A DNA stretch of 64,000 nucleotides from positions 17,380,155 through 17,444,154 of the forward strand of contig OW028573.1 in NCBI GenBank assembly GCA_932294295.1, given 5' to 3'. Made by a program: the position numbers and the translations under genes. Under the pieces are notes generated by a model that worked only from the letters and a program-made list of their open reading frames with translations, made no database searches and had not been told where the DNA came from. Shown piece by piece: positions 2,172-33,194 of the stretch (the first letter of the stretch is position 1; every line of letters starts with the position of its first letter). This DNA is from Alitta virens (lineage: Eukaryota; Annelida; Polychaeta; Phyllodocida; Nereididae).

Positions 2172-2292
2172 GGGGGGGGGGGGTTGTTTAGAAACCCTGT
2201 AAGATGCGTTTGCTGAGATACATTCTCCAAGAATAATCAGGGGCGCAGAACATGGGGGGGGGGGGATGCTAATGCAAATATCCCCCCCCCCC
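2172..2292. repeat. G-run, G-run, C-run cluster
   Basis: A run of 12 G (2172-2183) is followed by 12 G (2254-2265) and then 11 C (2282-2292). The second G-run and the C-run can pair to form a hairpin of about 11 G:C pairs around a 16-nt loop. The loop contains ATGCAAAT at 2272-2279, identical to the POU octamer motif. Homopolymer lengths may be sequencing-sensitive. Confidence 0.7.
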
Positions 2293-4596: not shown

Positions 4597-4867
4597 CTTT
4601 TTGCAAAGTGATGGACCTGGTAAGAATGTCCAGGTGGTTAGCAGATGAAACCAAGTTGATGGTTGGGATGCTTATGAGCGTGACAGACTGGTCTTTTCCA
4701 AGGAACCGTTGCTGGCCAACGAGACAGCGGCCACGCCTCTTGCAATACAGCAAATTGCGCCGCCAGCTCTCAATGCTCCATGCTGTGGCCCCCACAATAT
4801 TGCCAGTTATGGTATTGGCACATGCTGGACACAGATTAGCTGGATTGGTAGTAGCGCTAGAGTTGTC
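4597..4867 (-). CDS. Candidate internal coding exon, unknown protein
   Basis: On the minus strand an open frame is bounded by a cag|GAC acceptor (exon starting at 4867) and a strong AAG|GTAAGC donor (exon ending at 4597). The implied exon is 271 nt, entering in phase 0 and leaving in phase 1. Its roughly 90 residues contain a CPAC pair near the start, a Trp/Arg patch (SWRRNLLYC) and a further Cys pair (YCKRRGRC), followed by a hydrophobic, Ser/Thr/Leu-rich stretch. Base composition is clearly less AT-rich than the flanks, and no repeat copy of it is visible elsewhere in the window. I do not recognise the family; the paired Cys suggest an extracellular or small metal-binding module, but that is a guess. 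The polypyrimidine tract before the acceptor is weak. The opposite strand is also open, so strand choice rests on the splice sites. Confidence 0.38.
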
Positions 4868-5089
4868 CTGGTGTATACATGTCATCTGTTTGATAGAATG
4901 TTTGACTACTGTTAATGCGCTTTACTATATGTACATTTTAACATATTTCATGCTTTTATATAAATGCCTTTATCATAAGAATATTATCTAATTTAAGTAA
5001 TTCATTTACTTTCTTAAGTATTTGTATATTTAACAAATACTAATGTTGTACTTCAACAAAAATTGTTACATACTGCATTGCAATAGATT

Positions 5090-5090
<1 letters not shown>

Positions 5091-5171
<81 letters not shown>

Positions 5172-5321
5172 GCTACTACTACTGCTACTGCTGCTGCTAC
5201 TGCTGCTGCTACTGCTGCTGCTACTGCTGCTGCTGCTACTGCTGCTGCTACTGCTGCTGCTACTGCTGCTGCTACTGCTGCTGCTACTGCTGCTGCTACT
5301 GCTGCTGCTACTGCTGCTGCT
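5091..5321. repeat. Compound ACT/GCT trinucleotide microsatellite
   Basis: An uninterrupted ACT array (about 5091-5170) grades into ACT/GCT mixtures and then a regular 12-bp higher-order unit (one ACT followed by three GCT). The open frame across it would read polythreonine then alanine-rich protein, a by-product of the repeat. The two-zone structure suggests point mutation ACT to GCT followed by spread of a 12-bp unit by slippage. Confidence 0.95.
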
Positions 5322-6521
5322 CGATCACTCCTTTCCGCAGGAGAGGGTCTTGGAATTTAGGGGAGCAAGAGTCCTGGAGGGGAAGTAAGGAATTTGACTG
5401 TATACATAACTTTATATTAATCATTAGAATACAAATCGAAATCCCCAGTATTTAATAAAAAGGTGCAACCTAGTACGGGACGAATTTTAAAGAACTTTTT
5501 TGTTCGCCACTTAGTTAAATTTAACGTAGTGATTGACCTACTTTCGTCGCGTATTTCGCCACTACTACTAATACTACAAATTCACTGTATATAAGTTGTC
5601 ACAAACATTGACTCAACTGTCTATAACAGCTTATATGAGACGCGTTTGAAATGATCAAAACTGAGATACAGGTTTTGATATTAAAGGAATGGATTGACTC
5701 GCTGTTACATGATAAGCGGTTATTAAATTCACATGACGTCCTATGAAAGTAATAAGATATTGTCAGAAATAGTGTTGTTTGAAATTAAACTATCTACAAC
5801 TATCTACAAACACGCAATTTCAACACTGATTATATTGGTAATAAGTGATGGTCGCCTGTTAATCTGTGATCATCAAATGAGTTCAGCATCGAGTCCATCA
5901 ACTGGAAGTTGTTGGCATGAGACGTTAAACTGGTGGTGCCTTAAACTCGGCGTCTACGCTGGGACAAGTAAAATACCCTACCCGTGGAGTTATAATGTGT
6001 AACGTGGCCAGGACACCAAGCCTTATCATCTCATCATTACGTCTTCGTCTGGCAGCTGGCCCGATAATCTGATTAATCTTTAGATCAGTGGCATTTTAAT
6101 AATACAGAATCATGCACATTTAGTGCTTATATAAGTTATATCATCTGTTTGCTTGTGCATATCAACTTTTGCTAAGTATTTTATCTTTGTCTTTTCCACA
6201 TAATAATGCATTTAATATTCCTAAAAAGCTTCCTAATAAGCTATACGTACTGTTCAATTAGAAAGTAAGCTTCAGCTAAGTTATAGACTATACAATGTAA
6301 TGATTTATGTTTCCAAATGACAGTTGCTGTCTTGTTAGTTATTGATCGGATGACTTAATTGCATTGCGAAAATGAATGAGTGTTAAATATGAATTTGAAG
6401 TTGGTGTCTTCCCTTTGGCATATTTCACCAAAAAGAAAATACAGACGTGGGCTGATATGAGGACTAAGTAACAAGTTTGGCATGTTCGTAAAATTTCACA
6501 CTTAACAGTGCAGCAATGCAT

Positions 6522-6524
<3 letters not shown>
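5322..6524. other. Unannotated DNA
   Basis: No supported gene or element seen. Open frames are short and unrecognised. Confidence 0.5.

Positions 6525-6585
<61 letters not shown>
6525..6585. repeat. (AT)n microsatellite
   Basis: About 61 bases of alternating T and A. The short open frame crossing it on the minus strand (alternating Ile/Tyr) is an artefact of the repeat. Confidence 0.95.
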
Positions 6586-6590
<5 letters not shown>

Positions 6591-7754
6591 ACATCAAAGA
6601 GACATTTGCACAGCTGTAGGATTGGATTCCAACAGCAATTTCAACAGAAGTAAAATATGAAACATTGAAGTGCTGCTGTTGAAGTGCTGCTGTACATTTT
6701 ACTTGTTTGATATGCACACCATACCTTATTTAATGGCCAGTGCTTTCATGCATAATTTGACAAAGAAAAAGAAGGAAATGCAGAGAAAAAAAAATATTAT
6801 TATATTATCAAGCAGATGCAAATGAAGCCAATTACTTTTGATATTTATTTTTTGGCAGATCTTTTTTAAAATTTTCAACATATAGCTGCATGCAATCTGT
6901 TACTGACTGTTAACGTTATGCACTCTCATTGAACAGTTCTGTTTTCAAGGAATTAGATTCAGGAAGGATTTGTCGTTATTGCTTTTCCTCCTTATGTAAT
7001 TGCTTTCTTTTGAGGTTTGAAAATAATGTAATTTCATCGTATTAACGTCATAGGGATGCTGTTGACACATTATTTTTCCTTCAATGTGAGAGACCGCTTT
7101 GTCCTTCTCTTTTTATTTGTTTTTCGTTGCTGATCCTTGGAATTTGCTGATCTTCTCCGAGTTCTTTATTGAATTGTGATGAGCGTATTAAATAACATTA
7201 TAAATCAGTTATGCAACATGGAAAAGATGTGGCCCACTCTCCTTGGATGTAATGAAGGGATTGGATTTAGTTGAAGGCAAAATCATTTGCAGGAGAGCCA
7301 CAGGACATCCATCATTCACTGGAAAGGGAGATCAAAATGACTTTTAGTGTAACCATTCACCATATACAGACTCCGCAAAACTAACCATCCGTGTGTGCCT
7401 ATCCTTGGTCACTTAACTGGTTCATCGTTTACAGTCCATTTTCACGGAAGCTTCGATGAACGACTGCCTGTGTCATTTGTTGTCGGTCATCACACAGCAC
7501 TCATTCTAAGGTAATCACGAATAAATAAATAAAATAATAAAAAAACCATGGAAAATTATTCAAAACAACAGAGTTAAAAACATTTTGCTAGAATAGTTCG
7601 TAGAGGTTTGACCAGCCAGTGTATTATTCTTTTCAAGATGATTCATTGGTTTTCCAGTGGATCAAGTTGACCAACTTATGGTATAACGAAAGATATCAGT
7701 ATGATGTATGAAAGCCACGTAATAAGCGATTATAATCTCTACTTTAAGTACTTA
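6586..7754. other. Unannotated DNA
   Basis: No supported gene. A short AAAT-rich tract lies at about 7519-7545. Confidence 0.5.
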
Positions 7755-10148: not shown

Positions 10149-11138
10149 CTAAGACAGCCTTGAGTCATTTTGGTAGCCATCAATGAGCTTTTTGCAAATG
10201 GAAGGGGTAATTTTTTTCCATTCTTGTTGGCAAAAATTGACCAACTCCTCCAGGTTATGTGGGGACCTCTTGTGAACGGCCCTTTTCAAGTGATGCCACA
10301 GATTTTCAATTGGGTTGAGGTCTCGGGACTGGCTGGGCCACTCCAGGACTTTGATCTTATTCTTCTTGAACCATTCAGTGGTCACTTTGGCCATGTGTTT
10401 CGGGTCATTGTCCTGCTGGAACCTAAAATGTCTACCAAGCTTAAGATGCCGGACACTGCTGAGTAGATTGTCCTCAAGAATCAGGCGGTACTTGTCTCCA
10501 TTCATGATTCCTTCAATCTTTGCGAGTTTTCCTGTGCCTGCAGCCGCAAAGCACCCCCATAGCATGACACTGCCACCGCCATGTTTCACAGTTGGCATCG
10601 TTTTTGAAGGATCAAATTCTTCGCCTGTCTTTCTGCATACATACTTCTTCTGATTAACACCAAAAAGTTATATTTTGGTCTCATCTGACCATAAAATCTT
10701 TGACCATTGTTCTGGAGTATCATCAATGTGGGCCTTAGCAAATTTCAGACGGTTTCTTTTGTGGGTTTCCTTCAAAAAAGGCTTTTTTCGAGCGACACGT
10801 CCATACAAGCCTTTTTTGTGCAAATTCCGAGATATGGTGGACTCATGAACAGAAACACCTGACTCAGATGCAGACTCCCGCAGTTCTTTCAAAGTCACTG
10901 ATGGATTCTTGATGACCTCCCTCACAAGTTTTTAGCTCATTCTTGTGGACAGTTTTTTGGGACGGCCAGATCTTGGTGCCACTTTTACTGATCTTCTTGT
11001 TTTCCAGATATTAATGATATTCCTCACAGTACCACATGGCACAGAACGAAGTTTGCTGATTTTCTTATAACCAAGTCCACTTCTGTGTTTCTGAATAATA
11101 AGTTTTTTCAGCTGTTCTGAATGCTCCTTGGTTTTCAT
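10149..11138 (-). pseudogene. Tc1 transposase with two in-frame stop codons
   Basis: The gene would encode a cut-and-paste transposase of about 329 residues, normal length for Tc1. The N-terminal part (from the ATG at 11138) has the paired-like helix-turn-helix region, including a GLGYKKISK stretch, followed by a GRPKK hook. The middle contains WSDETKI, holding the first catalytic Asp. The C-terminal part holds the second Asp in FQQDNDPKH and the Glu in NPIENLW, giving the DD34E triad. The reading frame is continuous through all three parts, broken only by TAA at 10932-10934 and TAA at 10668-10670. The natural stop lies at 10149. No frameshift is needed, so decay is recent or slow. It cannot make full-length enzyme. 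Confidence 0.95.
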
Positions 11139-17331: not shown

Positions 17332-17337
17332 CACATC
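17332..17337. repeat. Left target-site duplication CACATC
   Basis: Identical to 33189-33194 at the other end of the element. Six bases is the length made by Polinton integrase. Confidence 0.85.
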
Positions 17338-17559
17338 AGTAGTATAAGATGGTGCTCTACAGACGTCAAAGGAATCCACTTGACTTTTTGGTGAAACGGA
17401 GGTGCTGGGGTGCTCGGGTGCTTCACGCTTCATTGATTTTCTTTTGTCCAGGATCAAAAGCCATCAATGCGTCATCGATTTTCTATTGTCCTAGATCAAA
17501 GCCATTCATTGATTTTCTATAGAACAGGACTGGAGCACCTGTGGTGGGGTAATTAATTG

Positions 17560-18840
17560 GACACCCTGTCAACTCCAGGAAACCCCCCTATTCTAAAAAT
17601 AGAATTGCGAAGTCACGGTGCAGTGAATCAGACCCCCCTTGGCCCCCCCTCCATTGTAATCCATTGCAGCCTGTTGTAGCGTGCTGTAGTCTATGGTGCA
17701 ATACTTGGAAACCCCCTATTCTAAAAATAGAAATGACTTTTTACCCCTCCAGAAGCAGCCCCTGGGGTGACTCTTTTACCCCATTCTTTAAACAATTAAT
17801 GTTCACTTAAATGATATTTATTACAACTGATTGGAAATTGAACTTAAGATAGCTTGAAGGGTGTATTCCTGCTATTAAGTGTGATATTAAGATCTTTAGA
17901 TTTACAATATTTCAAAACTGTGAATAAAAAGTAAAAAATATCCTAGAATAACTATGTTATTATCATAAGATATGCGCATCTTGTCCAAGTGTGCTATCAT
18001 TTGTTAGTTAATATAGTAGTGCGCATATATATCAATTATGAGGTTTACTAAAAGGTTTGACCAAATTTCTCTCATTTACTGTTAATTTAGTATCAAAGGA
18101 GCAAAACCCCTTCTTGATACCATGTGACATAGCCCCCCCTAGGAAGGAAGGGTGAAGATCTCTAGATAGTTGAGGGATTTACAAAGAAACCTTTCATTTA
18201 AGAATATCCAATATTAAAATCCCCTCAATATTAAGACCCCTTTGCAAAACTATAAACATACTAAATATCCCAGAATTAAGACCTCCATGATAATAAGTCC
18301 ACTTCAATCCATTTCAGTGATTACCTAGAGTGAAAACATAACTGGGGTTCCACTCAGTGGTTCCACTGTAGTTAAAATATGTGTCAGCTGCAGTGACCTG
18401 CATTCTTATTAGACTGTGTGTGTGTTTCCATCAGTGCAGGTAGTTGTGTACATCAAACATAAAGGATATCATATTAGGAATTTTGAGATTTAATGCTAGT
18501 TTGAGAGTTCATGTACTGGAAGGTAAGTTTATTTGTCTCATTTATGCTATTTTCATGTTAAAGACAAAGCTAAACGGTTTGCAATACACACTGATACATG
18601 AAAGATTAAGGAAGTTTTCTGTTACAGTATAGACTATCCAAGATTTGAAAAACTAAAAACCCACTGTTTAGTTCTGTGCATATAATGACAAGAATCAAGA
18701 ACTACAGAGCTCTCTAGTTCCTGATTGATATTTTGAGAGGTGTGCAGTATTTACCCCATTCTCTTGAAAAATTAATATTAAAATAATTCGGGTAGCATAT
18801 ATATTATAATTGATCAGAAGTTTAGCCTAGCAAAACAGAC
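17560..18840. other. Outer non-coding part of left arm
   Basis: No gene seen. The block ccctattctaaaaatagaa occurs twice (about 17587 and 17709). A degenerate ~80-bp segment beginning TTTACCCCATTCT is repeated near 17768 and 18750. Integrase, ATPase or capsid reading frames were looked for and not found. Confidence 0.5.
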
Positions 18841-18847
18841 TTCAACA

Positions 18848-20280
18848 GTTACAAACACATCTTCATTGTGGAAAATGTTTCAGACAATTCAATGACAGAA
18901 ATTCTCAAGAATTATGTCAAAGCAATTGTCAAGGTAATGTTGCATATCCAACTCAAACAACCACTCAATCGTGTGTTCCAACTCTTCAAATCAGTCAACC
19001 GGTGCATCGCAAATGCTATATTTGTAATGTTTGTGGTAAATCTTTCACCACTAGCTTTAAGAAGAATACCCATCAAAAGAAATGTACAGGAATCAAAGAA
19101 TGCGTACTTTGTCATACACAATTTTAAAATGTTTTTGGTGAACCCCTAGCAAAGAAATAACCTTTTTTGAGGTTAAAAATTCTTTTAAATTCCACCAAGT
19201 AAAAAAAATCAGCAAAATAGCTGATCAAAATTGTGGTGTCACAAGCTTGCATATGCGCAATGACATTGCTAAAACAGGTTACACATTTGTGTAACTTGTG
19301 AACTGAAAGCTTCAAACTGGCAATTCTAAACTATAAAAGCAACACTTTCACTCCATTTCTACAAATAAAATTCCCACCACCACTATCTATCTATCTATCT
19401 ATCTATGTTTTCATTCCATTCATGGTCAAATAAAGTTTTCATCACCATCATTTCAGTAGTGTTTGTAGAATATGCTGATTAGATGAGAATAGTTAGTAAT
19501 CAACGAGCTAAAATCTGATATACTTCAGTATCAAAAGAAATGTTCAGGCATCAAAGAATGCGTATATTGCCATATGCAATTTATTTCAGTTATTTATTTG
19601 AAAAAAGATAGAGAATAATCAGTAGAAAACACAATAATGTCAGAAGAAAATAAGTGTTTGTATGTGTAGTAATGTGCCAGACTTTAAAGAAGCCTATTGT
19701 GTAGCTGAACAAGATCGAGAGAAGCTTTTTAAATAAATGCTTACATACATGACAAGAATTCAAACAACTGCACAAGCACTCATCCAAGAGAAACTTGGTT
19801 ATGTAACAAAAGAATTAGAAATACAATTGAACACCTGGAATACTGATATTGATGAATATGATCTACACATTAGAACATTACTTCGCTCAGATCCAAGTTT
19901 TAGGATTTGATTCATCTAAATATGATATAAATTTAAAGAAAAAAGAAATAGCAAGCTGTTTAGAGTTGCACAGTGCAGAACACCAGTTTATAGTAAAGAG
20001 AAACAGTTCATACTCCTGCCTCTCACATGAAAAGTTTTAAATTCTTAGATGTGATAAATTACTTGGCACCTGAGCCAAGCTTCTTAAAAGCTTTTAAAAT
20101 TGCAGAACAGAAGGGCTACTTTCCCTATGAGTTTTTTGGTTACCCATCTACGCTTGATTATCCAGAATTACCCCCATATGAAGCTTTTTATTCTCTAAAA
20201 TAATGTAATGTTCTGGAGTCATAAGAAAATTACGAATGGTTGAAACAGTTTGGCTTATATTTGTGTTCTTGCTCATATAT
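18848..20280 (+). pseudogene. Polinton-type DNA polymerase B remnant, left arm
   Basis: Remains of a protein-primed family-B DNA polymerase, which in a live Polinton would copy the element. The first part (18848-19131) reads through two zinc-binding modules with Cys pairs such as CGKCF and CNVCGKSF, then KKCTGIKECVLCH. A second copy of that last module lies near 19530-19580. A segment from 19749 is followed, in another frame, by GFDSSKYDINL, which matches the exonuclease II region. In the third frame, 20027-20203 reads LDVINYLAPE and KGYFPYEFF, typical of the exonuclease domain, and NYEWLKQF follows near 20226. At least two frameshifts and several stops separate these pieces. The palm motifs of the polymerase domain were not found. 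It is dead and truncated. The gene points inward, as expected for the polB end of a Polinton. Confidence 0.82.
19384..19406. repeat. (CTAT)n tract in left arm
   Basis: A short tetranucleotide tract, mirrored in the right arm at about 31120-31142. Confidence 0.9.
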
Positions 20281-21176
20281 TTGGCAAGTTGACCAATGTT
20301 AAAGTTTCAACAACAACAAGCCTTGTCCAACAAAAGAGTAAAGCAGATTTCAGTTTAAAGGTTTATTCCAACAAAAAATATGACTGATATCCAACACATC
20401 AAAGCGAACTGCAAAACTGGCCAGAGTCAAGTGGAAATACCTGGTGCTTGGTGTACATTTTCCTGATTATGGTATTGGAGATAAAAATAAGATGAACAAA
20501 CTGTGTTTGGTGATGCGTTGTCTTGAGATTTACAGCTGCTGAGGTTTTTTAATATCCACTTACATAGACTAACCAGAGTTCATTTTTCCACAACCAGAAC
20601 CAACCTACATTGCATTGGAAAATGTATCCTAGTCCTGGTCCTCTAGTGGTAAATAGTTGTGTGACTAAGTAGGTCTTGTAGCTATTTTTGTCATAACTTC
20701 GGGCCTAATTGACATAGGGTGGCAAATGATAGATTAAAATATACATATATGAGGATAGAGAAATGAGTGAACTATGCTAGAATGATGACAAATGCTGCAA
20801 TGCATAATTTCTGAGGTTCAGTCTTCAATTTTATAATTTTATTTTTTGGAATAAAAAATTACAGAAAAAAAGACTTCCTAATGACTAAGCTTGTTTGATA
20901 ATCCGAAATCATAAAGACCAATTCACTCCAACTTTTAATTTCAAATATGAAGTATTTGATTTGAATGACCTTAAAAAGTAACTTGTGTGCAAATGGACAC
21001 AACTATTTAGGAAATGAAAAAATTTAGTTGGTTGAAATCTGCTTTTAGTTGTCCATTTCATCATCAGATCAGATTCACTGGCTTAGCTTCAGGGCTGTGA
21101 ATAGGAAGAAAATTGTTTTTCTGTTGTTCTGTTTACTGGAAAATGTCTGGTGCTCTCAGAAACCATTAGAAGTTCA
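20281..21176. other. Non-coding part of left arm
   Basis: No recognisable gene. It includes the site of the 5-base length difference between arms (extra ggtaa-like bases near 20,650). The polymerase palm region might have been expected here, but no such motif was found in any frame. Confidence 0.5.
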
Positions 21177-21823
21177 TTGGGCCATACCAAATTTCGACAA
21201 AGTTGCCTGATCTGAGTCAAAAAATAACTTAAAAAACCTGAAGCCTTACACCTCAACTATGTACTGAAAGCAAATAGGAAAGTTGGCATTCTGCACATTT
21301 TGAACCTACTGCCATAGCACTATGATTAATAGGCATTTTTAGCAGAATATCCACTGATGGCAATGCTGCAAATAAAGAACCCCTCGGAGGTGAGTGTTCC
21401 CATTGGAATTTTCAGCTGAAATTTTGTTTTCACATGCTTATGGACCTAAACCTCCTAAGATATGACATAGACATCATATTCTGGGAAAGTTGAGGCCAAC
21501 TGATGCACCCTAATGTACCAAAACGAGCAGGTATCTTAAAAAATATTCACCCTGGAGGTCTAAAGTATATTGTACATACCAAATATGGCCCTTCCGCACT
21601 TTGAGTGGTGTTATAACCTTCTAGATTAAACGGTTCTCAAGATACAGCCAAATTAGTTCCGAATTACCTGTATGAAAGGTTGAAATCATATACTGGGGCT
21701 GAACCAGCGTAAGGAGTAGTTCAGTTGCTCTGATTTTTCAGTGTTTGTTTTGGTCCCCATCCACAACGTTTGGGAAGCTTTGGCTCAGATGAGACAACTT
21801 TGTCGAAATTTGGTAGGGCCTAA
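21177..21823. mobile_element. Nested 647-bp MITE in left arm
   Basis: The ends are inverted repeats of about 40 bp with the shared core TACCAAATTTCGACAAAGTTG. AGTTCA lies directly outside both ends (21171-21176 and 21824-21829), a plausible 6-bp target duplication; an imperfect 8-bp one is also possible. The interior has no coding capacity. The identical element sits at the mirror position in the right arm, so it was there before the arms were duplicated or last homogenised. Confidence 0.8.
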
Positions 21824-22150
21824 AGTTCATGCCATGATATTCTTATGAGTATCAAGGTTGGTTGTTTCAAGGATATCAAAGCCTTTTAATTGTGACCTCT
21901 AAAGAGGTGCTTTGGTTACCCATGGTCACATGAATCAATCATTCAATCCATCTTGATGAACTGGGAACTTCTTACAGCTTCAGTAGTGAATACACGCATC
22001 TAGACATATTGCACTAATAGAGATAAAGATAGAACTGTGAAACTTTAACTTTTCTTGTCCTGACTGAACAACCACACAAAATAGCACGGAAGAGGAGCAT
22101 ACTTTTGAAATGAGAAATGGTGTTCAGGAGTTTCCTTCAACCCTTCAGCT

Positions 22151-22337
22151 GGGCGGGGGCCTAGCTCAGAGGTAGCGCTCTGGGCTTCCAACCGCTGGGT
22201 CCCGGGTTCGATTCCCGGTCGAGCCTAAGTTGGATGGCTGTTTCATCCTTCGTCTCATTGCCATGGTCTCTGCCTGTCCTAATTAGCCCAACTGGTGCAG
22301 AAATACAGGACGTAAAGCCCTAATCACCCACCCACCC
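22151..22337 (+). mobile_element. tRNA-Gly-like SINE S1, copy in left arm
   Basis: A near-consensus copy: head GGGGGCCTAGCTCAG, TTCCAA loop, intact box B GGGTTCGATTCCCGG, and a tail with taattagcccaactggtgc and acaggacgtaaag ending in CCCACCC. A perfect 14-bp duplication, TCAACCCTTCAGCT, flanks it (22137-22150 and 22338-22351), showing target-primed reverse transcription. A LINE in the genome must have supplied the enzyme. It is mirrored in the right arm with the same duplication. Confidence 0.93.
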
Positions 22338-22351
22338 TCAACCCTTCAGCT

Positions 22352-23557
22352 ACGTTCCAGGATATATCACAGCTTGTAAAGATTTCCAGATTGGACTTAA
22401 TTCTGATTTTCTATGAAAGGTATGCATTCTCCAGAGACAATTCTGCTTTGCGCATAAATCCAATTTCTCCAACCACCTATTGGATTATTCATTGGTCAGC
22501 AGTTTTCGTGTTTTGCATGTATTTTTTCCCTGTTAGGTGTGTAGCACAGATGATGATAGAAGAACACATTCTAAACTAAAACCAACAAAGGCATGTTTTC
22601 TGTTTTCTGATGGAAAATCAAAGAATGCAGATATACTACACATAGGGAGGAATTTGAAAGGATGAAGAGAAATCACCATATCAAAAGGGTAATTGCAAAT
22701 GTAGAAGTGGTTAACTAGAAATACAAAAGATGGTTGATCAAATTATCTGACTTATCCGTAGTAGGGGTAAAGATGCCTGCAACTCAGAGGTTAGGCTGCA
22801 ACTAAGATCTGCCAAAATGTTCAGGTCACAATGCATCATCAACTTTGCCAAGGTACTCAAATGTAGCATAACCAAAGAAGAATGACAAGTTCTGGGTGCA
22901 TTAAGACGAGACGAGTAAATTATTATACTTCAAACAATATAAGGGTAGGGCAAGTTGTCATGGATAAACAGTCTTCAGGTGGTATTAAATACAGCCTTTG
23001 TTACCATTCAGCTGTTAGAATTTTGAAGAGTCTAAAAATTTGGAGACCTGATTCCACTGGGAAACAATGGAAAGGGGTGCTAAATATGTATTCATATTGA
23101 CGGAAATGCATATCTTTCCTTTGCATGCAGTATAAACTTGACATTTTTTTCCCTTCATTGTTTTTTGATATCTTAAAACCAATTTATCAGCAAAAAGAGA
23201 GACAACTATGAGCTCCCAAGGGAGTCCAATGTTGTAATTTCCAACAGAATGCTTTCAGAAGATTTTACTGTCCTCCTTGTTACTGGGGTAAGTATGTTGA
23301 TGACACCTGGGAAGTCAGCCAACAATCACTTGAACATGAATTCACTGCCACCTAAACAATCAACATCCAACCAGTTAAAAAGTTAGATTAGGACAGGGTG
23401 AAACCACAGGCCCAACATGTGTGAGGTCATTAACCAACATATAATTAAAGTGGTCATCTGGCCCTGTTGCAATCTAGGAGAAACAGCATTGCACAGATTC
23501 ATGGGCTTGTGGGTTAAACATGTGCCAAATAAGGGTAAACTGAGGCTCCTAATGTCG
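22352..23557. other. Non-coding part of left arm
   Basis: Small open frames (62, 72 and 101 codons) are duplicated in the right arm only because the arms are copies. None shows a recognisable domain, and the 101-codon frame runs into the tandem repeat. Confidence 0.5.
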
Positions 23558-24200
23558 ATTTTTGGTAGCTGGGTAGTTAGCTATCCAGTAGGCACCAATA
23601 TTTGGTACAATTATTTAGCCAATAGATTAGGCTATCTAGTGAATACACCACCAAATTTCTGTTACCATTCTAAATACCCAGCTCCCAGATTTTTATGTAT
23701 CATTTTTCACACAAAAATTTAAATTTATTCAACAAATTTTTGGTAGCTGGGTAGTTAGCTGTCCTGTAAGCACCAATATTTGGTACCATTAAATAGCCAA
23801 TGATTAAAGCTACCTAATAAATACACTACCAAATTTCTCCTACCATTCTAAATACCCAGCTCCCAGACTTGTATGTGTAATTTTCAACCAAAAAGGTTAA
23901 CTTTCTTCAACAAATTTCTGGTATCTGGGTAGTTAGCTGTCCTGTAAGCACCAATATTTGGTACCATTAAATAGCCAATAGATTAGGCTATCTAGTGAAT
24001 ACACCACCAAATTTCTGTTACCATTCTAAATACCCAGCTCCCAGATTTTTATGTATCATTTTTCACAATTTCTTCTACCATTCTAAATACCCAGTTCCCA
24101 GACTTTTATGTGTCATTTTCAACCAAAAAAGTTATCTTTCTTCAACACATTTCTGCTACCTGGGTAGTTAGCTGTCCTGCAAGCACCTATATTTGGTACC
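23558..24200 (+). repeat. ~178-bp tandem repeats in left arm
   Basis: Units begin TTTTGGTAGCTGGGTAGTTAGC at about 23560, 23738, 23915 and 24149. Each contains caccaatatttggtacc, ccaccaaatttct and accattctaaatacccagct. Within a unit, GGTAGCTGGGTA and TACCCAGCT are inverted, as are accaaatttc and ggtacc-type motifs, so each unit can fold. One unit has a deletion and a partial duplication near 24,060-24,140. Confidence 0.9.
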
Positions 24201-24340
24201 TGGAAACCTTTCAGACTCTAACTATTTGATTCAACACCAATCCCTAGAAAGTATTATGAGGCAGACATAATGATGAGATAAGACTTGGGAGTCTAAGGGT
24301 GAGGTCTTTTACTTGCCTCAGCAATGACACTGAGCACTGC

Positions 24341-24350
24341 GCACTTCCCA

Positions 24351-24385
<35 letters not shown>

Positions 24386-26190
24386 ATTTCTTATTTAAAT
24401 CACAAAACTAAAGACAAAATCATATTTTACAAATTATTTAAAAATGTTTACCCAAAGTTACAATCTATTATGTTACTTACACTAGAAAAATAAGAGATTT
24501 GTTGACTTATTTAAGATATTTGACTAATAAAACCAAAAAAATAAAAATAATAAAATAAGACTAAGATCTGAAATCTCCCTTTAACTAAGCATAAACATAT
24601 ATATATATATATATATAAGTACTTATTACCCAAAGTGAAACTTCAACACAAAACTAGAAAATAGTCAAAGTTAACAAAATTATCTTAGAACTCCTTTTTA
24701 AATTGTCATAGGTAACCTACTTTTACTGATAATTATTTCACACTAACCCTAATTATGTAACTTCCATCTATCTACAGTCATCTTGTAATGTTAACCATCA
24801 TGTTCTTCTAGGTTAATCCCTAATTATTGGTCTGAAAATGTTCAAGTCTGTTCATACAGTGACAGGTATCCCTATTGCATGCGGATGTTTTTCAGGAACA
24901 ACATGATCAAAGTAATGAATTACCAGACATTTTTTGTTAATGCATCAAAATTGTTTAATGCATTTCAATATAAGAGACTTCAGTTTCATGGAAGATAGTC
25001 ACAATTTAAGTTTGTTACAAACATCTTGTCACATTATTTGCTTTAGCAGAAAGCATATGATCATGTGACTTGAACAAAACAAGAATAAAGTATAGTTTAG
25101 CTTTTTATTTTCCTATGTTGACTTATACCATGTCTCCATTCTTATACTAATTGGTAAAATACTGATAGCACCACTGTAAAATCACTCCAAGACATTGACA
25201 AAACACAAACTACTAGATAAATTCATATTACTTCTAGAAAATACATGTTTAATTATATAATTAGGACGTGATTAATGGATATTTAAAAGCTTATAGTCAT
25301 AAAACTGCTGCAAGAAATCACACTTATGCAATGGCTCCAACATATGAATATCTTAAATTATACACTATTTGGATAATTGATTACAAGAATAAGGGATTAT
25401 CCTTAATAGGAGTCAGTTTGTTTTTAATACTTTGCTAGTTTTGAACTTCTTGATGTAGCAAAATCACAAGTATGCTGTCAGCTTTAACCCAATTAAGTAT
25501 GTTTAGCTCATAATGTGAAGTACATCTTTCTGTTATTTATTGTTTGTCACATCATAACTTTGTTTCCTAATGTTACAAAAAGTATGAGTATCACAATTAA
25601 GTGCAACATTTGTAGAGAAAGCATCCTCAATGATACTTTGTTTCACATTCACTGCATAATGCAAACTAGTTTAAGAAATATTCTCTGTTATAGATCTAAA
25701 GTGTTCTTCATATAAATGAGTTAGCTTTTGTTAATAATCTTGTGTAGTAACAAAATATACATCTTTAATTGGAGGATTCAAAGTGAAACTTTACAACCCA
25801 ACTTAAAATCAAAAGCTTCTAATAAATTAATTCGCATCAACTTAATGATACTTTTCTGAAACTTAGCTAATATGTTAATGTGATTGTATGACTTAGTAGC
25901 TTGTTAATCCAACTTGTTAAACATTTTAAGAGTTTGTTTCATATAAGAACAGTGCTGAACACTTCAAATAACAAAGCAACAAAGGGGAGCATGTAAACAA
26001 CTCACATAAATATGGTAAGTTAGGATGTTTTAAACAATAACATATACAAAATGTATGTTACATATTTATTTCATTAGACATAGCTATTAACTTTAGACAG
26101 AAGTGTTACACATTATGATTCCATAATACTTTTTCTACATTGCTATACCATATTCATTAGAAATGTGAAATTAGAGGTACCTCACACTCA
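24341..26190. other. Central spacer between the arms
   Basis: A 1,850-bp single-copy core, strongly AT-rich. It begins with a (TATC)n tract at about 24352-24382 and has (AT)n at about 24598-24617. No gene recognised; the 66-codon frame at 25515-25715 starts with a hydrophobic run but has no other support. Homology ends sharply at 24340 and 26191. Confidence 0.8.
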
Positions 26191-26330
26191 GCAGTGCTCA
26201 GTGTCATTGCTGAGGCAAGTAAAAGACCTCACCCTTAGACTCCCAAGTCTTATCTCATCATTATGTCTGCCTCATAATACTTTCTAGGGATTGGTGTTGA
26301 ATCAAATAGTTAGAGTCTGAAAGGTTTCCA

Positions 26331-26975
26331 GGTACCAAATATAGGTGCTTGCAGGACAGCTAACTACCCAGGTAGCAGAAATGTGTTGAGCAGAGTTAAC
26401 TTTTTTGGTTGAAAATGACACATAAAAGTCTGGGAACTGGGTATTTAGAATGGTAGAAGAAATTGTGAAAAATGATACATAAAAATCTGGGAGCTGGGTA
26501 TTTAGAATGGTAACAGAAATTTGGTGGTGTATTCACTAGATAGCCTAATCTATTGGCTATTTAATGGTACCAAATATTGGTGCTTACAGGACAGCTAACT
26601 ACCCAGATACCAGAAATTTGTTGAAGAAAGTTAACCTTTTTGGTTGAAAATTACACATACAAGTCTGGGAGCTGGGTATTTAGAATGGTAGGAGAAATTT
26701 GGTAGTGTATTTATTAGGTAGCTTTAATCATTGGCTATTTAATGGTACCAAATATTGGTGCTTACAGGACAGCTAACTACCCAGCTACCAAAAATTTGTT
26801 GAATAAATTTAAATTTTTGTGTGAAAAATGATACATAAAAATCTGGGAGCTGGGTATTTAGAATGGTAACAGAAATTTGGTGGTGTATTCACTAGATAGC
26901 CTAATCTATTGGCTAAATAATTGTACCAAATATTGGTGCCTACTGGATAGCTAACTACCCAGCTACCAAAAATCG
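26331..26975 (-). repeat. ~178-bp tandem repeats in right arm
   Basis: Mirror image of the block at 23558-24200, with the same unit order and the same internal deletion. Confidence 0.9.
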
Positions 26976-28193
26976 ACATTAGGAGCCTCAGTTTACCCTT
27001 ATTTGGCACATGTTTAACCCACAAGCCCATGAATCTGTGCAATGCTGTTTCTCCTAGATTGCAACAGGGCCAGATGACCACTTTAATTATATGTTGGTTA
27101 ATGACCTCACACATGTTGGGCCTGTGGTTTCACCCTGTCCTAATCTAACTTTTTAACTGGTTGGATGTTGATTGTTTAGGTGGCAGTGAATTCATGTTCA
27201 AGTGATTGTTGGCTGACTTCCCAGGTGTCATCAACATACTTACCCCAGTAACAAGGAGGACAGTAAAATCTTCTGAAAGCATTCTGTTGGAAATTACAAC
27301 ATTGGACTCCCTTGGGAGCTCATAGTTGTCTCTCTTTTTGCTGATAAATTGGTTTTAAGATATCAAAAAACAATGAAGGGAAAAAAATGTCAAGTTTATA
27401 CTGCATGCAAAGGAAAGATATGCATTTCCGTCAATATGAATACATATTTAGCACCCCTTTCCATTGTTTCCCAGTGGAATCAGGTCTCCAAATTTTTAGA
27501 CTCTTCAAAATTCTAACAGCTGAATGGTAACAAAGGCTGTATTTAATACCACCTGAAGACTGTTTATCCATGACAACTTGCCCTACCCTTATATTGTTTG
27601 AAGTATAATAATTTACTCGTCTCGTCTTAATGCACCCAGAACTTGTCATTCTTCTTTGGTTATGCTACATTTGAGTACCTTGGCAAAGTTGATGATGCAT
27701 TGTGACCTGAACATTTTGGCAGATCTTAGTTGCAGCCTAACCTCTGAGTTGCAGGCATCTTTACCCCTACTACGGATAAGTCAGATAATTTGATCAACCA
27801 TCTTTTGTATTTCTAGTTAACCACTTCTACATTTGCAATTACCCTTTTGATATGGTGATTTCTCTTCATCCTTTCAAATTCCTCCCTATGTGTAGTATAT
27901 CTGCATTCTTTGATTTTCCATCAGAAAACAGAAAACATGCCTTTGTTGGTTTTAGTTTAGAATGTGTTCTTCTATCATCATCTGTGCTACACACCTAACA
28001 GGGAAAAAATACATGCAAAACACGAAAACTGCTGACCAATGAATAATCCAATAGGTGGTTGGAGAAATTGGATTTATGCGCAAAGCAGAATTGTCTCTGG
28101 AGAATGCATACCTTTCATAGAAAATCAGAATTAAGTCCAATCTGGAAATCTTTACAAGCTGTGATATATCCTGGAACGTAGCTGAAGGGTTGA

Positions 28194-28380
28194 GGGTGGG
28201 TGGGTGATTAGGGCTTTACATCCTGTATTTCTGCACCAGTTGGGCTAATTAGGACAGGCAGAGACCATGGCAATGAGACGAAGGATGAAACAGCCATCCA
28301 ACTTAGGCTCGACCGGGAATCGAACCCGGGACCCAGCGGTTGGAAGCCCAGAGCGCTACCTCTGAGCTAGGCCCCCGCCC
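28194..28380 (-). mobile_element. tRNA-Gly-like SINE S1, copy in right arm
   Basis: Mirror of the copy at 22151-22337, flanked by the same 14-bp duplication. One C-to-T type change at a CpG (acaggaTgtaaa instead of acaggaCgtaaa) separates the two, consistent with methyl-CpG decay after the arms last became identical. Confidence 0.93.
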
Positions 28381-28707
28381 AGCTGAAGGGTTGAAGGAAA
28401 CTCCTGAACACCATTTCTCATTTCAAAAGTATGCTCCTCTTCCGTGCTATTTTGTGTGGTTGTTCAGTCAGGACAAGAAAAGTTAAAGTTTCACAGTTCT
28501 ATCTTTATCTCTATTAGTGCAATATGTCTAGATGCGTGTATTCACTACTGAAGCTGTAAGAAGTTCCCAGTTCATCAAGATGGATTGAATGATTGATTCA
28601 TGTGACCATGGGTAACCAAAGCACCTCTTTAGAGGTCACAATTAAAAGGCTTTGATATCCTTGAAACAACCAACCTTGATACTCATAAGAATATCATGGC
28701 ATGAACT

Positions 28708-29354
28708 TTAGGCCCTACCAAATTTCGACAAAGTTGTCTCATCTGAGCCAAAGCTTCCCAAACGTTGTGGATGGGGACCAAAACAAACACTGAAAAATCA
28801 GAGCAACTGAACTACTCCTTACGCTGGTTCAGCCCCAGTATATGATTTCAACCTTTCATACAGGTAATTCGGAACTAATTTGGCTGTATCTTGAGAACCG
28901 TTTAATCTAGAAGGTTATAACACCACTCAAAGTGCGGAAGGGCCATATTTGGTATGTACAATATACTTTAGACCTCCAGGGTGAATATTTTTTAAGATAC
29001 CTGCTCGTTTTGGTACATTAGGGTGCATCAGTTGGCCTCAACTTTCCCAGAATATGATGTCTATGTCATATCTTAGGAGGTTTAGGTCCATAAGCATGTG
29101 AAAACAAAATTTCAGCTGAAAATTCCAATGGGAACACTCACCTCCGAGGGGTTCTTTATTTGCAGCATTGCCATCAATGGATATTCTGCTAAAAATGCCT
29201 ATTAATCATAGTGCTATGGCAGTAGGTTCAAAATGTGCAGAATGCCAACTTTCCTATTTGCTTTCAGTACATAGTTGAGGTGTAAGGCTTCAGGTTTTTT
29301 AAGTTATTTTTTGACTCAGATCAGGCAACTTTGTCGAAATTTGGTATGGCCCAA
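28708..29354. mobile_element. Nested 647-bp MITE in right arm
   Basis: Mirror of 21177-21823, with the same ends and flanking AGTTCA. At least one base differs (ccatcaatgg against the left-arm equivalent). Confidence 0.8.
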
Positions 29355-30245
29355 TGAACTTCTAATGGTTTCTGAGAGCACCAGACATTTTCCAGTAAAC
29401 AGAACAACAGAAAAACAATTTTCTTCCTATTCACAGCCCTGAAGCTAAGCCAGTGAATCTGATCTGATGATGAAATGGACAACTAAAAGCAGATTTCAAC
29501 CAACTAAATTTTTTCATTTCCTAAATAGTTGTGTCCATTTGCACACAAGTTACTTTTTAAGGTCATTCAAATCAAATACTTCATATTTGAAATTAAAAGT
29601 TGGAGTGAATTGGTCTTTATGATTTCGGATTATCAAACAAGCTTAGTCATTAGGAAGTCTTTTTTTCTGTAATTTTTTATTCCAAAAAATAAAATTATAA
29701 AATTGAAGACTGAACCTCAGAAATTATGCATTGCAGCATTTGTCATCATTCTAGCATAGTTCACTCATTTCTCTATCCTCATATATGTATATTTTAATCT
29801 ATCATTTGCCACCCTATGTCAATTAGGCCCGAAGTTATGACAAAAATAGCTACAAGACCTACTTAGTCACACAACTATACTAGAGGACCAGGACTAGGAT
29901 ACATTTTCCAATGCAATGTAGGTTGGTTCTGGTTGTGGCAAAATGATCTCTGGTTAGTCTATGTAAGTGGATATTAAAAAACCTCAGCAGCTGTAAATCT
30001 CAAGACAACGCATCACCAAACACAGTTTGTTCATCTTATTTTTATCTCCAATACCATAATCAGGAAAATGTACACCAAGCACCAGGTATTTCCACTTGAC
30101 TCTGGCCAGTTTTGCAGTTCGCTTTGATGTGTTGGATATCAGTCATATTTTTTGTTGGAATAAACCTTTAAACTGAAATCTGCTTTACTCTTTTGTTGGA
30201 CAAGGCTTGTTGTTGTTGAAACTTTAACATTGGTCAACTTGCCAA

Positions 30246-31678
30246 ATATATGAGCAAGAACACAAATATAAGCCAAACTGTTTCAACCATTCGTAATTTT
30301 CTTATGACTCCAGAACATTACATTATTTTAGAGAATAAAAAGCTTCATATGGGGGTAATTCTGGATAATCAAGCGTAGATGGGTAACCAAAAAACTCATA
30401 GGGAAAGTAGCCCTTCTGTTCTGCAATTTTAAAAGCTTTTAAGAAGCTTGGCTCAGGTGCCAAGTAATTTATCACATCTAAGAATTTAAAACTTTTCATG
30501 TGAGAGGCAGGAGTATGAACTGTTTCTCTTTACTATAAACTGGTGTTCTGCACTGTGCAACTCTAAACAGCTTGCTATTTCTTTTTTCTTTAAATTTATA
30601 TCATATTTAGATGAATCAAATCCTAAAACTTGGATCTGAGCGAAGTAATGTTCTAATGTGTAGATCATATTCATCAATATCAGTATTCCAGGTGTTCAAT
30701 TGTATTTCTAATTCTTTTGTTACATAACCAAGTTTCTCTTGGATGAGTGCTTGTGCAGTTGTTTGAATTCTTGTCATGTATGTAAGCATTTATTTAAAAA
30801 GCTTCTCTCGATCTTGTTCAGCTACACAATAGGCTTCTTTAAAGTCTGGCACATTACTACACATACAAACACTTATTTTCTTCTGACATTATTGTGTTTT
30901 CTACTGATTATTCTCTATCTTTTTTCAAATAAATAACTGAAATAAATTGCATATGGCAATATACGCATTCTTTGATGCCTGAACATTTCTTTTGATACTG
31001 AAGTATATCAGATTTTAGCTCGTTGATTACTAACTATTCTCATCTAATCAGCATATTCTACAAACACTACTGAAATGATGGTGATGAAAACTTTATTTGA
31101 CCATGAATGGAATGAAAACATAGATAGATAGATAGATAGATAGTGGTGGTGGGAATTTTATTTGTAGAAATGGAGTGAAAGTGTTGCTTTTATAGTTTAG
31201 AATTGCCAGTTTGAAGCTTTCAGTTCACAAGTTACACAAATGTGTAACCTGTTTTAGCAATGTCATTGCGCATATGCAAGCTTGTGACACCACAATTTTG
31301 ATCAGCTATTTTGCTGATTTTTTTTACTTGGTGGAATTTAAAAGAATTTTTAACCTCAAAAAAGGTTATTTCTTTGCTAGGGGTTCACCAAAAACATTTT
31401 AAAATTGTGTATGACAAAGTACGCATTCTTTGATTCCTGTACATTTCTTTTGATGGGTATTCTTCTTAAAGCTAGTGGTGAAAGATTTACCACAAACATT
31501 ACAAATATAGCATTTGCGATGCACCGGTTGACTGATTTGAAGAGTTGGAACACACGATTGAGTGGTTGTTTGAGTTGGATATGCAACATTACCTTGACAA
31601 TTGCTTTGACATAATTCTTGAGAATTTCTGTCATTGAATTGTCTGAAACATTTTCCACAATGAAGATGTGTTTGTAAC
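30246..31678 (-). pseudogene. Polinton-type DNA polymerase B remnant, right arm
   Basis: Mirror of the left-arm remnant, with the same zinc-binding modules, exonuclease-like pieces, stops and frameshifts. Sharing every lesion shows the gene was already dead before the two arms were last copied from one another. Confidence 0.8.
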
Positions 31679-33188
31679 TGTTGAAGTCTGTTTTGCTAGG
31701 CTAAACTTCTGATCAATTATAATATATATGCTACCCGAATTATTTTAATATTAATTTTTCAAGAGAATGGGGTAAATACTGCACACCTCTCAAAATATCA
31801 ATCAGGAACTAGAGAGCTCTGTAGTTCTTGATTCTTGTCATTATATGCACAGAACTAAACAGTGGGTTTTTAGTTTTTCAAATCTTGGATAGTCTATACT
31901 GTAACAGAAAACTTCCTTAATCTTTCATGTATCAGTGTGTATTGCAAACCGTTTAGCTTTGTCTTTAACATGAAAATAGCATAAATGAGACAAATAAACT
32001 TACCTTCCAGTACATGAACTCTCAAACTAGCATTAAATCTCAAAATTCCTAATATGATATCCTTTATGTTTGATGTACACAACTACCTGCACTGATGGAA
32101 ACACACACACAGTCTAATAAGAATGCAGGTCACTGCAGCTGACACATATTTTAACTACAGTGGAACCACTGAGTGGAACCCCAGTTATGTTTTCACTCTA
32201 GGTAATCACTGAAATGGATTGAAGTGGACTTATTATCATGGAGGTCTTAATTCTGGGATATTTAGTATGTTTATAGTTTTGCAAAGGGGTCTTAATATTG
32301 AGGGGATTTTAATATTGGATATTCTTAAATGAAAGGTTTCTTTGTAAATCCCTCAACTATCTAGAGATCTTCACCCTTCCTTCCTAGGGGGGGCTATGTC
32401 ACATGGTATCAAGAAGGGGTTTTGCTCCTTTGATACTAAATTAACAGTAAATGAGAGAAATTTGGTCAAACCTTTTAGTAAACCTCATAATTGATATATA
32501 TGCGCACTACTATATTAACTAACAAATGATAGCACACTTGGACAAGATGCGCATATCTTATGATAATAACATAGTTATTCTAGGATATTTTTTACTTTTT
32601 ATTCACAGTTTTGAAATATTGTAAATCTAAAGATCTTAATATCACACTTAATAGCAGGAATACACCCTTCAAGCTATCTTAAGTTCAATTTCCAATCAGT
32701 TGTAATAAATATCATTTAAGTGAACATTAATTGTTTAAAGAATGGGGTAAAAGAGTCACCCCAGGGGCTGCTTCTGGAGGGGTAAAAAGTCATTTCTATT
32801 TTTAGAATAGGGGGTTTCCAAGTATTGCACCATAGACTACAGCACGCTACAACAGGCTGCAATGGATTACAATGGAGGGGGGGCCAAGGGGGGTCTGATT
32901 CACTGCACCGTGACTTCGCAATTCTATTTTTAGAATAGGGGGGTTTCCTGGAGTTGACAGGGTGTCCAATTAATTACCCCACCACAGGTGCTCCAGTCCT
33001 GTTCTATAGAAAATCAATGAATGGCTTTGATCTAGGACAATAGAAAATCGATGACGCATTGATGGCTTTTGATCCTGGACAAAAGAAAATCAATGAAGCG
33101 TGAAGCACCCGAGCACCCCAGCACCTCCGTTTCACCAAAAAGTCAAGTGGATTCCTTTGACGTCTGTAGAGCACCATCTTATACTACT

Positions 33189-33194
33189 CACATC
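33189..33194. repeat. Right target-site duplication CACATC
   Basis: Exact match to 17332-17337. Confidence 0.85.

What the first reader, a model, noticed from the sequence alone, without database searches (positions are those of the whole stretch)
17338..33188. A 15.85-kb Polinton-derived element that is almost all palindrome
Two ~7.0-kb inverted arms around a 1.85-kb spacer form one unit with AG/CT ends, a polB remnant in each arm and a 6-bp duplication outside. Known Polintons have terminal repeats of about 0.1-1 kb and a single polB. I infer a non-autonomous Polinton with giant terminal repeats, formed from the polB end of an ordinary element by snap-back synthesis or inverted fusion. Protein-primed replicons such as adenoviruses are known to give inverted-duplication molecules, which makes this route plausible. 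I know of no described Polinton class of this form.
Basis: partly seen in the sequence, partly recalled or inferred. Interest (0 to 1): 0.92.

Follow-up and report, generated by a model that had tools for sequence, protein, structure and literature searches.

The report
Mirror-image Polintons made by snap-back copying
This 15.85-kb stretch is one of at least 14 mirror-image relatives, in one genome, of Polintons (virus-like jumping DNA); it has kept only broken pieces of Polinton genes, likely arose when a replicating DNA strand folded back and copied itself, and is predicted to spread with enzymes from intact relatives, much as "snap-back" defective genomes live off whole viruses.

Summary
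Arms of 7003 and 6998 bp, identical except for one 5-bp indel, flank an 1850-bp spacer, start AGTAGT, and lie inside a CACATC duplication. Not an assembly artefact: the same arm/spacer junction occurs at 10 places, and 10 of 10 have matching 6-bp duplications, all different. Four more palindromes were read, and six further loci show an inverted pair of the polB-remnant segment: 14 read, 20 likely. A 19.4-kb Polinton with open PolB, integrase, protease and ATPase frames, ~340-bp TIRs and 99%-matching ends lies in the same genome. Two other centres are hairpins at short inverted repeats that unfolded relatives also hold (6 bp, 22-nt loop; 12/13 bp, 99-nt loop), with one-sided deletions beside them. 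One palindrome is 99.2% identical to one end of a non-palindromic relative. Arms agree within elements more than between them, with exceptions. Best reading: satellite Polintons born by snap-back synthesis and kept symmetric while replicating; synthesis and helper are inferred. My paper searches listed no such Polintons.

The parts
17332..17337 (+). Left target-site duplication CACATC
17338..24340 (+). Left arm, 7003 bp (called arm 1-7003)
   Evidence: identical to the right arm except a 5-bp indel
17338..17603 (+). Left terminus (arm 1-266), 99.2% identical to the TIR of the Polinton C9:27082868; the three sister copies compared share only about arm 1-74 (or less) and 240-300 with it
18783..19139 (+). 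Remnant of the zinc-finger ORF that overlaps the start of polB in the relative (residues 113-232)
   Evidence: tblastn
19650..20256 (+). PolB remnant, residues about 521-740, broken by stops and frameshifts
20648..20652 (+). 5 bp present in the left arm only, the single difference between the arms; also present in the left arm of copy C14:21645021 (L045)
   Evidence: L045 sequence printed
23558..24200 (+). 178-bp tandem array in the left arm; its three units hold an inner inverted repeat 99 nt apart (e.g. 23563-23575 and 23675-23687; 12/13 bp in two units, 11/13 in the third), the kind of site at which group B palindromes fold
24341..26190 (+). Spacer, 1850 bp; matching sequence lies, interrupted, inside the non-polB end of C3:5664 and C5:915; the nine sister copies have a longer distance between arm ends (3.6-3.8 kb start to start against 2.0 kb)
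24335..24346 (+). Left arm/spacer junction CACTGC|GCACTT, shared by 10 loci; the corresponding place in C3:5664 and C5:915 reads GGGCTGCACTT
26331..26973 (-). 178-bp tandem array in the right arm
26191..33188 (-). Right arm, 6998 bp; its junction with the spacer is also present in C3:5664 and C5:915
30270..30876 (-). PolB remnant in the right arm (mirror of 19650-20256)
31387..31743 (-). Zinc-finger ORF remnant in the right arm (mirror of 18783-19139)
33189..33194 (+). Right target-site duplication CACATC

Best explanation
The window element is one of at least 14 palindromic Polinton derivatives in this genome, with two 7.0-kb arms identical except for a 5-bp indel inside its own 6-bp duplication; it likely arose by snap-back (self-primed) copying of a replicating strand and is predicted to move with PolB and integrase supplied by intact relatives. 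Shown: ten loci share its arm/spacer junction, each with a matching and different 6-bp duplication, which implies that the palindrome itself was the unit that integrated. Shown: at least three different junctions or centres exist, two of them hairpins at short inverted repeats that are also present in unfolded sequence. Shown: left and right arms of one element mostly agree more than arms of different elements. Inferred: during protein-primed strand displacement a truncated strand keeps one Polinton end, its 3' end pairs with a nearby inverted repeat, and it is extended back to its 5' end. The hairpin then opens into a linear palindrome with two identical ends, each able to serve as origin and integrase site. 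Inferred: one-sided deletions next to the centre leave the spacer, and later rounds through a hairpin or panhandle recopy one arm from the other.
For: Ten of 10 junction-A copies have both ends read and a perfect 6-bp duplication, all different. Inverted pairs of the polB-remnant segment occur at 17 loci, with 7 single hits and no other layout within 20 kb (41 of the 77 rows). Centre C (C12:128): 11-bp stem and 22-nt loop; the relative C5:915 has TATACA-loop-TGTATA at the same place, and the arms are 99.2% identical to it over 6984 bp. Centre B (C2:4857, C14:451, C6:2505): one 99-nt loop with stems of 26, 13 and 40 bp; the unfolded array in the window arm holds the same inverted repeat 99 nt apart, 12/13 bp in two units and 11/13 in the third. 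Random breakpoint pairs with loops of 0-150 nt show a 6/6 repeat in 0.0007-0.0011 and a 12/13 repeat in 0.000013 (whole arm) to 0.00011 (inside the array) of draws. One-sided deletions abut these centres (155 bp in C; different lengths in C2/C14 and C6). Arm concordance: the window has 0 of 6998 between arms but 36 of 6324 to the left arm of copy C14:2165 beyond arm 500. Of 9 junction-A copies with both arms scored, 6 have equal arm scores and 2 differ by 5 bits; the sum of differences is 38 against a shuffle mean of 346 (66 of 200,000 shuffles as low). C6:2505 arms differ by 2 of ~742 but by 6-9 from C2/C14, which share its centre. Both window termini carry the same TIR of the C9 type. A potential helper with open PolB, rve+chromo integrase, protease and ATPase frames is present.
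Against: Nothing here shows replication or movement today. The fold-back evidence is cleanest for centres B and C. The window's own junction A shows only a 4-bp CTGC overlap with its relatives plus two extra bases (or a TGC|GCA self-complementary point), and its fold-back is inferred by analogy. Arm homogenisation could also come from gene conversion in the chromosome, and it is not complete: C5 scores 1725/1697, C12:2420 has unlike ends and lacks the scored segment in its left arm, and C2/C14 arms group weakly left with left and right with right in one of two regions (support 0.77-0.79). Part of the 36 differences to C14:2165 are that copy's own later mutations. C14:451 lacks its last 14 bp on one side and shows no 6-bp duplication. 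Six of the 20 loci are known only from inverted hits; neither their ends nor their centres were read.
Confidence: 0.78

Rival explanations
1. Assembly artefact: a single Polinton end with its inverted copy produced by chimeric palindromic reads or a mis-join.
For: The window arms are identical over 6998 bp apart from one indel, which a palindromic read could give.
Against: A perfect duplication abuts both outer ends and the flanks beyond it are unrelated (0.33-0.43 identity, five elements tested). Nine further loci share the junction with other duplications, spacer lengths and arm variants. A read chimera would invert the flanks too.
Confidence: 0.02
2. The palindromes formed by host replication template switching or break repair (as in yeast ODIRA), not by the Polinton polymerase, and were later captured by Polinton integrase.
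For: Yeast inversion junctions fall at pre-existing 2-14 bp inverted repeats, and 3 of 92 likely had secondary deletion of one arm (PMC10766183 section 20), very like centres B and C.
Against: In 13 of 14 palindromes read the outer ends are exactly Polinton termini with 6-bp duplications, so the molecule was linear and ended at the TIRs. A chromosomal event would be expected to carry flanking host DNA into the arms; in the five elements tested the two flanks are unrelated beyond the duplication.
Confidence: 0.12
3. The arms were lengthened and kept identical by gene conversion or recombination between terminal inverted repeats inside the chromosome, without any snap-back replication.
For: Long chromosomal palindromes are known to convert arm to arm (recalled); arm identity here is high.
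Against: The 22- and 99-nt hairpin loops at short repeats are not expected from conversion. The pair C5:915/C12:128 shows replacement of one whole end rather than a patch. Ten copies with own duplications show that the palindrome existed before integration.
Confidence: 0.12
4. Two Polinton fragments inserted next to each other in opposite orientation, or a nested insertion.
For: Polinton ends are common in this genome (200 first-look candidates for the terminal 300 bp).
Against: One pair of duplications surrounds the palindromes, and the same inner junction recurs at ten loci.
Confidence: 0.01

Closest known systems
Polintons/Mavericks (self-synthesising DNA transposons, polintoviruses)
   Same: AGTAGT ends, 6-bp duplication, TIR 99.2% identical over 266 bp to a 19.4-kb copy with PolB, integrase, protease and ATPase frames in the same genome. 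Vertebrate Mavericks have (AG)3//(CT)3 and (AGT)2//(ACT)2 end motifs and 6-bp duplications (PMC8097293, passages).
   Different: Arms of 7.0 kb against 46-1,447 bp (mean 402) in intact vertebrate Mavericks (PMC8097293, passage) and 343-365 bp in three ordinary copies here; only gene remnants; nearly the whole element is palindrome.
Snap-back defective genomes of adeno-associated virus
   Same: Partial genome with one original end, folded on itself, in symmetric and asymmetric (looped) forms (PMC8235507, passages).
   Different: AAV is a parvovirus with its own ITRs; here the products were integrated with 6-bp duplications and form a multicopy lineage.
Symmetric recombinant or inverted-duplication DNAs of adenovirus and hairpin derivatives of yeast linear plasmids
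   Same: Protein-primed replicons yielding palindromes from one genome end (recalled; no title listed is about them).
   Different: Those are laboratory or episomal forms (recalled); here they are integrated element families.
ODIRA inverted amplicons in yeast
   Same: Inversion at short pre-existing inverted repeats, some with likely secondary one-arm deletions (PMC10766183, abstract and section 20).
   Different: Host chromosome fragments; here the ends are Polinton TIRs.
Polinton-like viruses with long TIR (PgVV and kin)
   Same: Linear genome of about 20 kb with long terminal inverted repeats (PMC4642659, passages; lengths not seen).
   Different: They encode capsid proteins; here the middle is a 1.85-kb spacer in which tblastn with ten Polinton frames found nothing.

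Membership tests
Polinton/Maverick | 6-bp target-site duplication | tested here: met
   Window CACATC and 9 of 9 other junction-A copies; 3 of 4 other palindromes read; 6 of 6 non-palindromic relatives checked
Polinton/Maverick | Terminal inverted repeats starting with AG | tested here: met
   AGTAGT at both ends; (AGT)2 end motif printed for vertebrate Mavericks
Polinton/Maverick | TIR of about 0.05-1.5 kb | tested here: not met
   Arms 7003/6998 bp; published vertebrate range 46-1,447 bp (PMC8097293). It therefore counts as a derivative, not a standard Polinton
Polinton/Maverick | Protein-primed PolB and rve integrase genes | tested here: not met
   Only PolB residues ~521-740 and a zinc-finger piece match in the arm, no integrase match; both are open frames in the relative C9:27082868
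Polinton/Maverick | Shared ends with an autonomous-looking member in the same genome | tested here: met
   Terminal 266 bp 99.2% identical to C9 and 98.5-99.2% to the ends of C1:48325312
Polinton/Maverick | Protein-primed replication | not testable with these tools
   Inferred from PolB of relatives
Snap-back defective genome | Palindrome made from one genome end | tested here: met
   C12:128 arms 99.2% over 6984 bp to one end of C5:915. For the window copy inconclusive, because its arm is composite
Snap-back defective genome | Fold-back point at a short inverted repeat | tested here: inconclusive
   Met for centres B and C; for the window's own junction A only a 4-bp overlap or a 6-bp self-complementary point
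Snap-back defective genome | Depends on, and interferes with, a helper | not testable with these tools
   A helper candidate exists; no activity data
Teratorn (piggyBac/herpesvirus composite) | 18-bp TIRs and a transposase-type composite element (PMC6431247 passages) | tested here: not met
   7-kb arms with PolB remnants inside a 6-bp duplication

The most novel reading that the evidence does not exclude
These are satellite Polintons with a hairpin life cycle: born repeatedly by snap-back of truncated Polinton strands, they regenerate their second half by copying the first at each round, so that mutations, and even a TIR taken from the autonomous helper, appear on both ends at once. The genome thus holds an integrated, datable record of defective-genome formation by a protein-primed replicon, and of a parasite of a virus-like parasite.
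Probability: 0.5. Interest if true: 0.92.

Novelty: new variant of a known kind. Interest (0 to 1): 0.86.

Why it matters
Polintons are thought to replicate by protein-primed synthesis, mainly because they carry PolB; direct traces of how they replicate are rare (recalled). Palindromes with snap-back centres at short repeats, integrated with 6-bp duplications, would be a footprint of linear, end-primed replication outside the chromosome. They would also show that Polintons, like viruses, throw off defective genomes that become successful parasites in their own right. The arm concordance makes the replication route testable by sequence alone in any genome with such elements. It is also a warning for annotation: 7-kb near-perfect inverted repeats here are biology, not assembly error.

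Tried and rejected
Rejected: assembly artefact, two neighbouring insertions, and a chance inverted repeat (see rivals). Rejected: the idea that the arm is simply the polB end (the outer 1.49 kb matches non-polB-end sequence). Considered and left open: whether the window's spacer is a one-step loop or what one arm kept after a one-sided deletion; I favour the second because B and C show it.

Led nowhere: PolB fragments in Pfam, PDB and viral contigs; the whole PolB frame in Pfam and PDB (zinc-finger matches almost only); Rfam on the window (0 matches); TIR lengths in PMC6035795 (none found). Literature on Polinton palindromes: searches showed listings with abstract starts only, 2 of 2, 25 of 26, 20 of 44, 8 of 8, 3 of 3 and 15 of 151 papers. 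None of the listed titles or abstract starts describes palindromic or snap-back Polintons; the 8 do not mention Polintons at all. Subscription papers and preprints are mostly not held. I did not learn how many loci share centres B and C, because those searches did not complete.

Rows dropped before counts: one search used 41 of the 77 rows (left out: 34 short rows at query 193-245, one 89-bp row, one 37-bp row). In one search, region 2, six of 14 rows were skipped (five without a match, one partial). One search counts differences beyond arm 500 only; the first 500 columns hold 52 more in 451 compared, where the terminus differs, and there are 13 gap runs. Only 40 candidates were scored per genome search (of 200, 211, 205 and 430), so all copy numbers are lower bounds.
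Full report
What is there. The window holds two arms, 17338-24340 and 26191-33188, that are exact inverted copies except for 5 bp (20648-20652) found only on the left, with 1850 bp between them. Both outer ends read AGTAGTATAAGATGG and are flanked by CACATC. The arm holds a zinc-finger ORF remnant, a PolB remnant (residues about 521-740), a SINE-like stretch (my reading of the sequence) and a 178-bp tandem array. Only gene remnants were found: the stop-to-stop frames listed from the left end to the end of the spacer are short, the longest 107 aa, and tblastn with ten frames of a relative found only the two remnants in the left arm and nothing in the spacer.

The family. The window lies on contig C1 of a 671-Mb genome in 23 contigs (host not named). 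The terminal 300 bp gave 41 matches (40 of 200 candidates scored), most of them paired ends of elements. Ordinary relatives exist. C9:27082868-27102286 is 19.4 kb, has ~343-bp TIRs and the duplication GCGGAC, and has long open frames for PolB (1455 aa), integrase with chromodomain, a C5/C48-type protease and a weakly A32-like ATPase. PolB identity rests on residues 450-1450 having 1179 related proteins; of the 120 listed, 19 carry PF03175 and three are named DNA-directed DNA polymerase. Pfam did not call the frame itself. C1:11023850 and C3:60527326 have 365-bp TIRs and matches to the same frames; the PolB of the latter is in several pieces. C5:915 and C3:5664 keep PolB over residues 12-1455 and the zinc-finger frame, but no match to the integrase, protease, ATPase or 444-aa frame. 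Their other end is made of sequence found in the window: arm up to 1493, then an unshared stretch, then the spacer, interrupted, then arm 7003 to 6864 reversed.

The palindromic copies. The window's left junction (arm 7003|spacer 1) is spanned at 10 places, each with an inverted partner arm end, 3.6-3.8 kb away (start to start) in nine and 2.0 kb in the window (40 of 211 candidates scored). All ten have both ends read, and in all ten the six flanking bases match: CACATC (window), GAGAAG, TGTATC, TCTATC, CCTATA, TTGATG, CTCATC, TCTATA, AATGAA, CAGGGT. All differ. One, TCTATC, lies at a TCTA microsatellite and is weaker evidence. Four more palindromes were read: C2:4857 (GATATT), C6:2505 (TGCCTC), C12:128 (CCCGTA) and C14:451, which lacks 14 terminal bases on one side and has no duplication. 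So 13 of 14 have a checked 6-bp duplication. With a 1-kb polB-remnant query, 41 of 77 rows (short rows dropped) give 17 converging inverted pairs within 20 kb, seven single hits (two of them in C6:2505 and C12:2420) and no other layout. Six of the 17 pairs are new loci, not read further; with them 20 palindromic loci are likely.

The centres. C12:128 (1287838-1302108, 14,271 bp) is nearly all palindrome: its left and right halves are 99.6% identical over 6713 bp. Its centre is an 11-bp stem around a 22-nt loop. Its arms are 99.2% identical over 6984 bp to the non-polB end of C5:915. There the same 22 nt sit between TATACA and TGTATA, and the next bases outward do not pair. The product stem continues beyond these 6 bp as copying would make it. 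Beside the centre one arm lacks 155 bp. C2:4857, C14:451 and C6:2505 share another centre: a 99-nt loop with stems of 26, 13 and 40 bp. The unfolded array in the window arm holds the same inverted repeat 99 nt apart in three units (arm 6226/6338 and 6404/6516, 12 of 13; 6582/6694, 11 of 13). In these three elements one arm is deleted up to the stem: from arm 2914 in C2 and C14, and from about 4985 in C6. Random breakpoint pairs show a 6/6 repeat in 0.0007-0.0011 of draws, and a 12/13 repeat in 0.000013 (whole arm) to 0.00011 (inside the array). For the window's own group the right junction is native, because it is present in C3:5664 and C5:915. The left one is new, with CTGC shared and GC extra. 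By analogy I read the spacer as what remains of one arm after a one-sided deletion next to the original centre; this is inferred.

The arms evolve together. The ten junction-A copies share one junction, so the palindrome most simply formed before they spread; without recopying, left and right arms should then differ at least as much as copies do. They do not. The window has 0 of 6998 between arms but 36 of 6324 beyond arm 500 against the left arm of C14:2165, part of them that copy's own later changes. Arm scores are equal in six of nine copies with both arms scored, 5 bits apart in two and 28 in one; the sum of left/right differences is 38 against a shuffle mean of 346 (66 of 200,000 shuffles as low). 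C6:2505 arms differ by 2 of ~742 while they differ by 6-9 from C2/C14, which share their centre. C7 has a 10-bp longer match at both termini. The window carries the C9-type TIR (99.2% over 266 bp) at both ends, which the three sister copies compared do not. Against this: C5 is discordant, C12:2420 has unlike ends, and C2/C14 arms group weakly by side in one region. Homogenisation is therefore frequent but not obligatory, and chromosomal gene conversion is not excluded.

Mechanism. The best-supported route: protein-primed strand displacement on a linear Polinton (inferred from family knowledge) leaves a truncated single strand with one end. Its 3' end pairs with a near inverted repeat and is extended to the 5' terminus. 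The hairpin is opened by a new round from its single end into a palindrome with two identical Polinton ends. Integrase acting in trans inserts it with a 6-bp duplication. The outer ends and duplications are shown, as are the centres B and C and their repeats; synthesis, helper and hairpin cycle are inferred. Host template switching is the main rival for the first step.

Compared with what is known. Intact vertebrate Mavericks have TIRs of 46-1,447 bp (PMC8097293, passage). Polinton-like viruses with long TIRs are known and encode capsid proteins (PMC4642659, passages). Snap-back defective genomes, symmetric or looped, are known in AAV (PMC8235507, passages). Yeast ODIRA junctions use 2-14 bp inverted repeats, and a few likely lost part of one arm afterwards (PMC10766183, section 20). 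Adenovirus symmetric recombinants and yeast linear-plasmid hairpins are recalled, not read. No title or abstract start listed describes palindromic Polintons; these lists are partial and cover open-licence papers only. The element works like a snap-back satellite. It is a Polinton by ends and duplication, but not by TIR length or gene content.

Noticed in passing
G000 C5:9135004-9151160 (L042/L039) and C3:56631684-56645642 (L041/L038): Polinton derivatives that keep a PolB match over residues 12-1455 and the zinc-finger frame but no integrase, protease, ATPase or 444-aa frame match, with duplications CATGAG and TTTGTG: a polB-only class.
   Followed up: partly
window 17338-17603 and 32923-33188: Both termini of the window copy carry a TIR of the C9 type, unlike the three sister palindromes compared: an end swap present on both sides.
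   Followed up: partly
window about 22150-22330: SINE-like repeat inside each arm with a tRNA-like head (read by eye); matches to arm 4806-5001 also occur in other loci (L040, L042).
   Followed up: no
window 10149-10667 (-): DDE_3 transposase fragment of 172 aa, by look Tc1/mariner type.
   Followed up: no
window 49581-49834: GC-rich minisatellite with 21-bp units in an otherwise ~37% GC region, open in frames on both strands.
   Followed up: no
G000 C7:758848-765891 and C7:6032009-6037904: Arms of the window type that appear without an inverted partner in the hits listed: possibly half elements or unfolded progenitors.
   Followed up: no
G000 C6:23915933-23916968: PolB-remnant segments in directly abutting inverted order (gap -1): possibly a palindrome centre lying inside the polB remnant.
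   Followed up: no
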